From NCBI RefSeq assembly GCF_041821085.1, contig NZ_JBGUAZ010000003.1:124001-188000 (forward strand): DNA of 64,000 bases. The letters are read 5' to 3'. Shown one piece after another: positions 2,358 to 27,570 of the stretch. Under the pieces are notes generated by a model. It saw only the letters and a program-made list of their open reading frames with translations. It was not told where the DNA came from and did no database searches. The stretch is from Natrinema sp. HArc-T2. GTDB taxonomy: Archaea; Halobacteriota; Halobacteria; Halobacteriales; Natrialbaceae. The position numbers and the translations under genes were made by a program. Positions within the stretch are counted from its first letter, which is position 1; each line of letters opens with the position of its first letter.

Positions 2358-2498
2358 ATGAAAGACATCAAACTCGACCCCAAGACGGAATCGACCTACG
2401 AGTGTTTCGACTGCGGGACCGTCGTCCACGCAACTGCGCCCGATTCCTGTCCGAACTGCGGTGCGGAGATGCGGAATCGCCGAATGCCGGTCGAATAA
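2358..2498 (+). CDS. Rubrerythrin-like zinc-ribbon microprotein
   Basis: A 46-residue protein with two CxxC knuckles, CFDC and CPNC, spaced as in a single zinc ribbon. The internal ATG at 2358 was chosen over the upstream ATG at 2316 because the added 14 residues look non-coding and the AT-rich TATA-like stretch at about 2295-2312 fits a transcription start downstream of 2316. Small zinc-finger proteins of this type are common in haloarchaea and often resemble the rubredoxin-like end of rubrerythrins. No catalytic part is present. A role in protein or nucleic-acid binding is a guess. It lies convergent with the phosphoribosyltransferase gene. Confidence 0.75.
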   Translation: MKDIKLDPKTESTYECFDCGTVVHATAPDSCPNCGAEMRNRRMPVE

Positions 2499-2521
2499 CC
2501 AGACTCGTTGTGAACGGTCCG

Positions 2522-3151
2522 TTAGCCGTCCCGATCGAGATACGCGATCGCTTCTTCGTCGGTTACCTGCCCGAAGTTCCGGTAGTACTGGCCGACAGCA
2601 CGGAAATCCGCTGGCGTCTGCAAAGCGATCACCTCGTCGGTCTCCCGCTCGAGTTCGTCGACCGAGCGGGGTGAGCCGACGGGGACTGCCAGCCCGACCC
2701 AGTCTGCGCCGCTTTCCTGGACTTGCCGGAGGCAGGCCGTTGCGGTCGCCCCCGTCGCGACGCCGTCGTCGACGACTGCGACCCGCTTTCCCTCGAGATC
2801 CGGTAACCCCTCCGTCTCACGGTACCGGTCCGCCTTTTGGCGCGCGTTCTCCGCTTCTTCGGCCCGGACCTCCTCGAGATACTCCTCGGGGACGTCGACT
2901 CGGGCGATCAGATCGTCGTTGTACCAGACGCTGCCGTCGCTTGCGACCGCACCCAGAGCGAGTTCGGGGTTCGCTGGGGCACCCAGCTTGCGCGCGACGA
3001 CGACGTCTAAGTCGGCGTCGAGTGCGTCTGCAACCGGGCGCGCGACGGGTAAGGCCCCGCGGGGAATCCCGAGGACGATGTCGATCTCGAGATCGCGGGC
3101 CTCGAGTTCCGCGGCGAGTCGTTCGCCAGCGTCAGTTCTGTCGTCGAACAT
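2522..3151 (-). CDS. Phosphoribosyltransferase family protein
   Basis: A 209-residue type I phosphoribosyltransferase fold. The PRPP-binding loop is at about residues 126-139 (VAVVDDGVATGATA), with the two acidic residues followed by the glycine and threonine loop expected of the family. A second motif near the N-terminus (GIPRGALPVA) matches the pyrophosphate-loop region of this subgroup. Haloarchaeal proteins of this type are usually annotated only as phosphoribosyltransferases; the base substrate cannot be read from the sequence. It is transcribed separately from the universal stress gene upstream (68 bp gap). Confidence 0.88.
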   Translation of the reverse strand: MFDDRTDAGERLAAELEARDLEIDIVLGIPRGALPVARPVADALDADLDVVVARKLGAPANPELALGAVASDGSVWYNDDLIARVDVPEEYLEEVRAEEAENARQKADRYRETEGLPDLEGKRVAVVDDGVATGATATACLRQVQESGADWVGLAVPVGSPRSVDELERETDEVIALQTPADFRAVGQYYRNFGQVTDEEAIAYLDRDG

Positions 3152-3219
3152 GGTCTAGCAGCAACCTACGATCGCAACCCACTATGGGTTTGTGTCGCAC
3201 ACGTCGAGTGGTCGTGTGA

Positions 3220-25300: not shown

Positions 25301-25407
25301 ATGTCGGCCATGGTCCGGACAGGCGACAGAGACAGTCTCGAGGGTGTCGGCGTCGCCGGCCCCGTGGACGCACAGTCGATCGTATTCGTACACGGGTCGA
25401 TGTTCAC
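25301..25407 (+). pseudogene. Alpha/beta hydrolase, N-terminal fragment split by IS
   Basis: The first 35 codons and two extra bases of an alpha/beta hydrolase gene, ending in QSIVFVHGSMFT, which is the strand-3 HG oxyanion motif. The frame is broken at 25407/25408 by a transposable element. The right fragment (26871-27570) continues it in phase: TTC AC joined to G CGA AAG gives MFTRKIWLP. Adding the pieces gives 807 bp, exactly 269 codons. An alternative start is the ATG at 25310. Confidence 0.88.
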
Positions 25408-25514
25408 AGGCGGTACGAGGCGGATGCCCCGACCCTTGAGGTCGAGGAGGAAGCCGACACTCGATGAAACTCACCACGCTCGATGGCAAGGCCGACTCCC
25501 CACCTATACGTAAA

Positions 25515-25525
25515 CCATTATTATG
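25515..25525 (+). promoter_or_regulatory. tnpB promoter
   Basis: CCATTATTATG at 25515-25525 is a TATA-like box about 27-30 nt before the ATG at 25551, so the gene still has a promoter even though it is frameshifted. Confidence 0.5.
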
Positions 25526-25550
25526 TAACAGCCGTAAATGTGAACCACGG

Positions 25551-26821
25551 ATGGACGACGCGCCACGACGCACCGTCCCCATCAAACTCGATGTGCCCGA
25601 AGAGCGTCGTGGCGACCTCCATCGAACCAAAACCCAATTTCTGCACTGTGCCAACCGCACTAGCGAGTGGGCATGGCGGTACGACGACTACTGCATCACC
25701 GTAAGTCAAAGGCTGAAAACGCCCTGTACGGTGAGCTGCGTGAGGAAACCGACCTCACCGCCAACCTCGTCCAGAAGGGCATTCGACGCGCCATCGAAGC
25801 CGTCACAGGTGGCGTCGAGAAACTGAAACAGGGCGAGAAGACGAGTCAGCCCGAGTTCGACTCGTGGAGCGTGGTGTACGACAAGCGGAGTGCGACGTTC
25901 AACGACGACCACGCCACGCTCTCCACGCCGAACGGCAGAGTCACCTGCGAATACGTCCTTCCACCCGAGGACGAACGTGAGAGTACGCCGTTTGGTCGAT
26001 ACTACGAGAGAGACGACTGGGATGCCTCCAGCGCCACGCTTCAGTACGACGAGCAAGGCGACACGTTCTACCTGCACGTCACGCTGAAAAACCCGGACTA
26101 CGTGGTTGACGAAACGGAACGCCAAGAAGCCAGTCACGATGATGAAACCCCCAAGAACGGAGTGGTTCTCGGCGTGGACTTGAACGTGACTGGCGCGTTC
26201 GCCGTCACCAGTACCGGAGCATTCCTCGGGAGCGCAGACCACCTCAACCACAAGCGCGACCAGTACGAACAACGGCGTGGACGCCTCCAACAGGTGGGCA
26301 CTCGGTCGGCTCACCGCACGATTCAGTCTCTCGGCAGTCGGTTCTCGAACTGGTCGCTTGACTGGCTCCACAACCGTGCGAACGACCTTATCAAAGAAGC
26401 CCAAGACGCGGACGTGGACGGCATCATCTTCGAGAACCTCAACCATATCCGCGAGAATATCGCCAATGGCTCGAAGTTCCAGCAGTGGGCGTATGCGAAG
26501 TTCATGGAACTCGTGGAGTACAAGGTCGAGTCCACGGAGTTGTTCGTGGACACGGTGAATCCCGCGTACACGAGCCAGCGGTGTTCGCACTGTGGGTTTA
26601 CCCACGAGGACAATCGTGACGACAAGCAGTTCGCGTGTCAATCGTGTGGGTACGAGGTGAACGCGGATTACAACGCAGCGAAGAACATTGCGAATCGGTA
26701 TTGCGGGTATATCCATCGCGGGCAGAAGTCTCGCGGTGGATGGGCTACCAGTCAGCTAGCCCTCAAGTCAGGGACGTTGAACGTGAACGGCGACTACACG
26801 CCTACCGAGTTACTCGGGTAG
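25551..26821 (+). pseudogene. tnpB: TnpB (RuvC-like RNA-guided nuclease family), frameshifted
   Basis: The first 50 codons (MDDAPRRTVPIKLDV to WAWRYDDYCIT) are in one frame and the rest (SKAENALYGELREETDL to the end) in another, with the break near 25700-25712; one missing base would explain it. The catalytic residues are all present: Asp in LGVDLNVTG, Glu in GIIFENLNH and Asp in NADYNAAKNIA, with a four-Cys zinc ribbon (CSHCG, CQSCG) between the last two. TnpB proteins cut DNA guided by RNA from the right end of their own element. With the shift, only a protein lacking the N-terminal part could be made unless the ribosome slips. Confidence 0.85.
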
Positions 26822-26890
26822 AACGGGAGTTCACTGACAAGCCTCGGGGCTTGACCCCGAGGCGGTTGACGCGAAAGATATGGCTACCCC
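26720..26890 (+). ncRNA. Candidate right-end guide RNA (omega RNA) of the TnpB element
   Basis: In this family an RNA overlapping the 3' part of tnpB and the right end acts as a guide, with the guide portion read from DNA just beyond the element. Here the scaffold would include the 26841-26863 hairpin and the guide would start at 26871 (GCGAAAGATATGG). The RNA boundaries are inferred, not seen. Confidence 0.4.
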
Positions 26891-27570
26891 AGCAGCAGGA
26901 ACTCTCCGGGGAGTTCCACACCGTCGCCCTCGACTTACCGGGACACGGATCTCGTGCCGGCAAACCGTTCCGGATGGAGCCAGCGCTCGACGTTCTGGAG
27001 GAGATCCTCGAGACGCACACCGACGGATCGGCGGTGCTCGTCGGGCTCTCATTGGGCGGCTACACGATCACGGAGTACGCCTACCGCCATCCTGACCAGG
27101 TCGACGCGCTGGTGCTGTCGGGGTGTAGTGCGAACCCAGTCGGGAAGTTGGAACTCAGCACCCGATTGACTGGCGGGCTTGCGCGGCTTCTGACCAAACC
27201 CGATCTCGGGAAGCGAGCCGCCGAGAAGTTGGCCGCACGCTGGGTTCGAAATCGGAACCTTCCACCGGATATCGAACGGGAAATCATCGAGGCCGGCTTC
27301 TATCCGAAGGGATTCGGCGACGCGGGGCCGGACATCGCGGGCGAGGACTTCCGGGCGAAACTCTCGACCTATCCCGGCTCGACGCTCATCCTCAACGGAA
27401 TAAACGACACGCTGATGCGTCGGGGTGAGCAGGCCCACGCCGGGGCCGCACAGGATGGCCGCGTGGAAGTACTTACGGACGCCGGTCACATCTGTAACCT
27501 CCACCGCCCAACGGCGTACGCAGACCGGGTTCGTCGGTTCGTCAACCGGACCGTCCTGACGCAACACTAG
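26871..27570 (+). pseudogene. Alpha/beta hydrolase, C-terminal fragment split by IS
   Basis: This is the larger part (233 codons) of the hydrolase interrupted at 25407. It begins RKIWLPQQQELSGEFHTVAL and keeps all three catalytic positions: Ser in GLSLGGY, Asp in NGINDTLM and His in DAGHICNLH. The restored protein would be 268 residues, a normal size for the family, probably an esterase or lyase of unknown substrate. As it stands it lacks its own start and the oxyanion HG motif. Confidence 0.88.

What the first reader, a model, noticed from the sequence alone, without database searches (positions are those of the whole stretch)
25301..27570. IS1341-type element splits a hydrolase gene and leaves a perfect restorable junction
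The left piece ends GATGTTCAC and the right piece begins GCGAAAG. Joined, they read ...MFTRKIWLP... in one frame and total exactly 807 bp (269 codons) with an intact Ser-Asp-His set. There is no target duplication, as expected for this family, and the insertion site is TTCAC. The insertion looks recent because the host gene shows no further damage.
Basis: seen in the sequence. Interest (0 to 1): 0.7.

Follow-up and report, generated by a model that had tools for sequence, protein, structure and literature searches.

The report
TnpB insertion element splitting hydrolase gene
In a salt-loving archaeon, an ordinary RNA-guided-nuclease mobile element (IS1341/TnpB type, itself already broken) has jumped cleanly into an enzyme gene that close relatives still carry whole; it is a clear, well-documented example of a known kind of event.

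Summary
An element of 1,463 bp (25408-26870) sits directly 3' of TTCAC in an alpha/beta-hydrolase gene. The flanks joined give an 807-bp ORF (268 aa plus stop). Haloterrigena sp. H1 carries the same locus with no element, and its DNA matches the predicted junction over about 60 bp. Twenty uninterrupted genus homologues have no extra residues there. The element is a TnpB-only (IS1341-type) IS200/IS605 member: copies about 98% identical lie elsewhere in two other genomes with essentially the same ends, and all 17 left ends found by pattern in the genus follow TTCAC. A reciprocal empty/filled pair also fits precise insertion.

(1) This copy's tnpB is frameshifted after about codon 49; its close copies are intact. 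(2) Its left-end hairpin has one mismatch. (3) The element's end encodes a covarying omega-RNA-like structure whose guide would be the downstream hydrolase sequence, so the restored junction would be its target. 'Recent' holds only as 'after the split from H1'; lack of host damage is weak evidence. The element has no tnpA, so restoration would need a transposase in trans; no matching one was identified. Ordinary biology, unusually clean.

The parts
25301..25407 (+). 5' piece of an alpha/beta-hydrolase gene (residues 1-35 and two bases of codon 36), ending in TTCAC
   Evidence: joined ORF; homologous and continuous in H1
25403..25407 (+). TTCAC target / TAM motif directly 5' of the element
   Evidence: precedes the left end in 17 of 17 copies found by left-end pattern in the genus; background frequency 6.4e-4 per position in this window
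25408..26870 (+). IS1341-type (TnpB-only) IS200/IS605 element, 1463 bp
   Evidence: copies of 98.4% and 97.8% identity elsewhere in G007 and G022 with the same left end and right end (the G022 right end reads GGC for GAC); empty site in H1
25427..25447 (+). left subterminal hairpin (CCCCGACC...GGTCGAGG), with one mismatch at 25445
   Evidence: most related copies with this hairpin, including the two 98% copies, read GGTCGGGG; position; fold weak, z -1.27
25551..26821 (+). tnpB, frameshifted near 25700 (after about codon 49); the remaining open frame 25667-26821 keeps RuvC and zinc-ribbon motifs
   Evidence: one base short relative to copies in G007 and G022, whose frames are open throughout; NCBIfam guided_TnpB 158 bits, cut-off 100; Pfam Cas12f1-like_TNB; PDB TnpB/Cas12f hits
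26691..26870 (+). predicted omega-RNA scaffold overlapping the 3' end of tnpB and the right end
   Evidence: 47-pair consensus, 94.4% of cells paired, 21 pairs with changes on both sides, 0 of 500 shuffles as high, lost when slid by 1-3 columns
26841..26863 (+). right terminal hairpin GCCTCGGGGCTTGACCCCGAGGC
   Evidence: ssDNA fold of the right end, z -4.9; conserved across copies
26866..26870 (+). TTGAC at the right end (presumed right cleavage site)
   Evidence: TTGAC in most full-length relatives, TTTAC or TTCAC in related ends
26871..26890 (+). would-be guide segment (GCGAAAGATATGGCTACCCC), which is also hydrolase codons
   Evidence: position relative to the right end; the 18-mer of TTCAC plus its first 13 bases occurs in the genus only at the H1 hydrolase and nowhere in the own genome
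26871..27570 (+). 3' piece of the hydrolase gene
   Evidence: joined ORF; 93% protein identity to uninterrupted H1 gene

Best explanation
A TnpB-only IS200/IS605 element inserted as single-stranded DNA directly 3' of TTCAC in the hydrolase gene of a Natrinema/Haloterrigena-group haloarchaeon, after its split from the Haloterrigena sp. H1 lineage. A Y1 transposase (TnpA) acted in trans, leaving no duplication, so the flanks are the ancestral gene cut in two. The gene is very probably non-functional now, because the VHG motif near the N-terminus is separated from the rest. While tnpB was intact, its RNA guide would have been the downstream hydrolase sequence and would have cut any precisely emptied copy, favouring retention; in this copy tnpB is frameshifted, so that safeguard is probably lost. 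Shown here: boundaries, motif, empty site, ancestral junction, frameshift, conserved RNA structure. Inferred: TnpA in trans, guide function, loss of enzyme function.
For: Exact empty site in H1. Twenty uninterrupted homologues with no extra residues at the junction. Near-identical ends in 98% copies at unrelated sites. TTCAC before 17 of 17 left ends. Reciprocal empty site: the H1 copy's target is uninterrupted in the own genome. Profile hits to guided_TnpB and no Y1 domain in the element. Covarying omega-RNA structure. Literature: ISDra2 excision needs TnpA, not TnpB, and restores the interrupted gene (PMC2806898); TnpB is proposed to cut emptied sites next to a TAM, and AmaTnpB uses TCAC (PMC10278001).
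Against: No TnpA with matching ends was identified in the own genome; three Y1 genes exist, but the ends that could be read next to them look different. PMC3119063 notes IS605-type movement in Haloquadratum although nearly all tnpA genes there are disrupted, so the mobilising enzyme is not settled. A single-base frameshift in a 32-contig draft could be a sequencing error.
Confidence: 0.94

Rival explanations
1. The apparent split is an assembly or chimera artefact, and the hydrolase is intact in the living strain.
For: Draft assembly of 32 contigs; repeats can cause false joins.
Against: The full element sequence is found only once in the own genome, so there was no second copy to mis-join; both breakpoints coincide to the base with the element's ends as defined by independent copies.
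Confidence: 0.02
2. The interrupted arrangement is ancestral and H1 lost the element by precise excision.
For: Excision of this family is precise in ISDra2 (PMC2806898), so a single empty site cannot by itself give direction.
Against: All 20 homologues read at the junction are uninterrupted, so loss would have to be repeated many times; the element sits elsewhere in H1.
Confidence: 0.03
3. The insertion is old and the gene pieces have been kept because they do something, for example the fused downstream ORF 26635-27570 is translated.
For: The right piece is open for about 233 codons without damage and joins an upstream open frame, 311 aa in all.
Against: H1, a near relative, lacks the insertion; the upstream 78 codons lie on tnpB in another frame; 11 assigned substitutions on this branch in the right piece are too few to expect a stop codon.
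Confidence: 0.04

Closest known systems
IS1341-type (TnpB-only) elements of haloarchaea, IS200/IS605 family (PMC3119063)
   Same: tnpB alone, near-terminal palindromes, no target duplication, short target motif on the left, few copies per genome, tnpB often disrupted, strain-specific insertions
   Different: Nothing essential; here the boundaries are unusually well fixed by two empty/filled pairs
ISDra2 of Deinococcus radiodurans (PMC2806898)
   Same: insertion 3' of a pentanucleotide, precise excision chemistry that restores an interrupted gene, TnpB beside it
   Different: ISDra2 carries its own tnpA; motif TTGAT instead of TTCAC
AmaTnpB (PMC10278001)
   Same: TAM TCAC, contained in the TTCAC seen here; omega RNA at the 3' end
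   Different: experimentally active nuclease; here tnpB is frameshifted
PATEs (palindrome-associated elements, PMC3119063)
   Same: element ends without an intact tnpB; a 348-bp internally deleted derivative with these ends, also after TTCAC, is in G008
   Different: the window copy keeps nearly the full tnpB

Membership tests
IS1341-type IS200/IS605 element | encodes TnpB (RuvC plus zinc ribbon) and no TnpA | tested here: met
   guided_TnpB 158 bits over cut-off, TNB domain over cut-off; RuvC Asp/Glu/Asp motifs GVDLN, FENLN, NADYN and both CxxC pairs present; no Y1 match at this locus. The reading frame is broken near 25700
IS1341-type IS200/IS605 element | subterminal hairpins at both ends, asymmetric positions | tested here: met
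   left hairpin begins about 20 nt from the end (one mismatch), right hairpin ends 7 nt from the end
IS1341-type IS200/IS605 element | insertion 3' of a short conserved motif without target duplication | tested here: met
   TTCAC in 17 of 17; exact empty site
IS1341-type IS200/IS605 element | structured omega RNA at the 3' end running into the flank | tested here: met
   structure covariation; transcription not tested; no Rfam omega-RNA/sotRNA match up to E 1
IS1341-type IS200/IS605 element | mobilised by TnpA in trans | not testable with these tools
   three Y1 transposases in the genome, none with shown matching ends
alpha/beta-hydrolase (Abhydrolase_6) | fold profile and Ser-Asp-His set in the joined frame | tested here: met
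   Pfam 84 bits; motifs; no NCBIfam equivalog passes its cut-off, so the substrate is unknown

The most novel reading that the evidence does not exclude
A natural case of uncoupled retention: the element's guide matches the precisely restored gene, but its nuclease is broken and no other close copy exists in the genome, so a rare excision by a TnpA in trans would give back a working gene that is no longer re-cut.
Probability: 0.25. Interest if true: 0.35.

Novelty: new member of a known kind. Interest (0 to 1): 0.2.

Why it matters
The ends of IS1341-type elements are hard to fix because they have no inverted repeats and no duplications (PMC3119063). Two independent empty/filled pairs, plus copies with matching ends, define this one to the base and give its motif (TTCAC) and probable guide RNA. 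That makes it a usable example, but it changes no view of the field.

Tried and rejected
Rfam search for the known haloarchaeal sotRNA families gave nothing relevant even at E up to 1. No cognate TnpA could be named: hairpins near the own Y1 genes differ, though in G007 a Y1 gene lies near a right end with the same hairpin. The element has no near match in the phage collection; among the listed plasmid records full-length relatives are at most about 86% identical. Age from host substitutions was tried and is uninformative.

Full report
What was claimed and what is there. All sequence details hold. The left piece ends GATGTTCAC at 25407, the right piece starts GCGAAAG at 26871, and the joined gene is 807 bp, 268 residues and a stop. 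The joined protein is an alpha/beta hydrolase (Pfam Abhydrolase_6, 84 bits); no NCBIfam equivalog model passes its cut-off, so the substrate is unknown.

Is the junction the original sequence? Yes. A search of 29 genomes of the genus found 22 with the hydrolase at E up to 1e-30, the own genome included. The best, G022, is Haloterrigena sp. H1, by a named search that gives the same coordinates. Its DNA runs through the site without any gap, identical over about 60 bp around the join, while the flanks overall are 94% identical. Twenty homologues were read at the junction: none has extra residues there, and TTCAC itself is present in 18 of the 20.

What the element is. It spans 25408-26870. Copies at 98.4% (G007) and 97.8% (G022) identity lie at unrelated places and begin and end at the same positions; the G022 right end differs by one base. 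A pattern search for the left end gave 17 places in 12 genomes, every one directly after TTCAC, against a background of 0.00064 per position. The H1 copy has its own empty site in the window's genome, again continuous across ...TTTCAC|TAGGA.... There is a hairpin near each end. The protein is TnpB by NCBIfam, Pfam and solved-structure hits, with the RuvC residues and zinc ribbon in place. There is no tnpA.

First, tnpB is frameshifted: this copy is one base short near 25700 relative to its intact 98% copies, so the open frame 25667-26821 lacks roughly the first 50 proper residues. Second, the left hairpin has a mismatch at 25445 that most related copies with the hairpin, including the two closest, do not have. 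Third, the last 180 bases fold into a structure supported by changes on both sides of 21 pairs, with no shuffle of 500 reaching it and collapse when slid, as expected for an omega RNA. By the known rule the guide is the flank downstream of the right end; here that is hydrolase coding sequence. The 18-mer of TTCAC plus the start of that guide occurs in the genus only in the intact H1 gene.

How it most likely works. By analogy with ISDra2, where TnpA alone excises the element and restores the interrupted gene (PMC2806898), the element was inserted by a TnpA acting in trans. An intact TnpB would cut the restored junction and so favour keeping the element (PMC10278001; PMC11870625). In this copy TnpB is probably dead. 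The genome has three Y1 transposases but none could be matched to these ends. These steps are inferred, not shown.

Age. The insertion follows the split from H1. Beyond that, host-gene damage is a poor clock: assigned changes in the right piece are 6 non-synonymous and 5 synonymous on this branch, 7 and 6 on the H1 branch. The gene is dispensable in the genus: seven genomes have no match at the threshold used, and G021 has a frameshifted copy.

Comparison and verdict. This is a member of the IS1341-type group long described in haloarchaea (PMC3119063), where strain-specific insertions, disrupted tnpB and core-deleted derivatives are all known. It is real, precise and well supported, and ordinary.

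Noticed in passing
L102 (G021:C1:2685500-2688800), about 1225-2021: The hydrolase homologue in G021 is frameshifted near residue 88, an independent loss of the same gene.
   Followed up: partly
L035/L076 (G008:C63:24671 onward): A 348-bp internally deleted derivative with the same left and right ends after TTCAC, a PATE-like element.
   Followed up: partly
L091 (G000:C6:186000-193500): A second TnpB-only element in the own genome with a similar right hairpin but ending TTCAC, and with a related left hairpin after an A/T-rich sequence, near a separate TnpA-TnpB pair.
   Followed up: no
A1 columns 61-67 and 177-183 (window about 26751-26757 and 26864-26870): The last seven bases of the element can pair with an upstream GTCAGCT/GTCAACT, so the right cleavage site is also part of the predicted omega-RNA fold.
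   Followed up: partly
L100 (G007:C2:490000-495000), 1163 and 2497-3177: A Y1 TnpA lies near a right end with the same hairpin, so a TnpA-bearing relative of this element family may exist in the genus.
   Followed up: no
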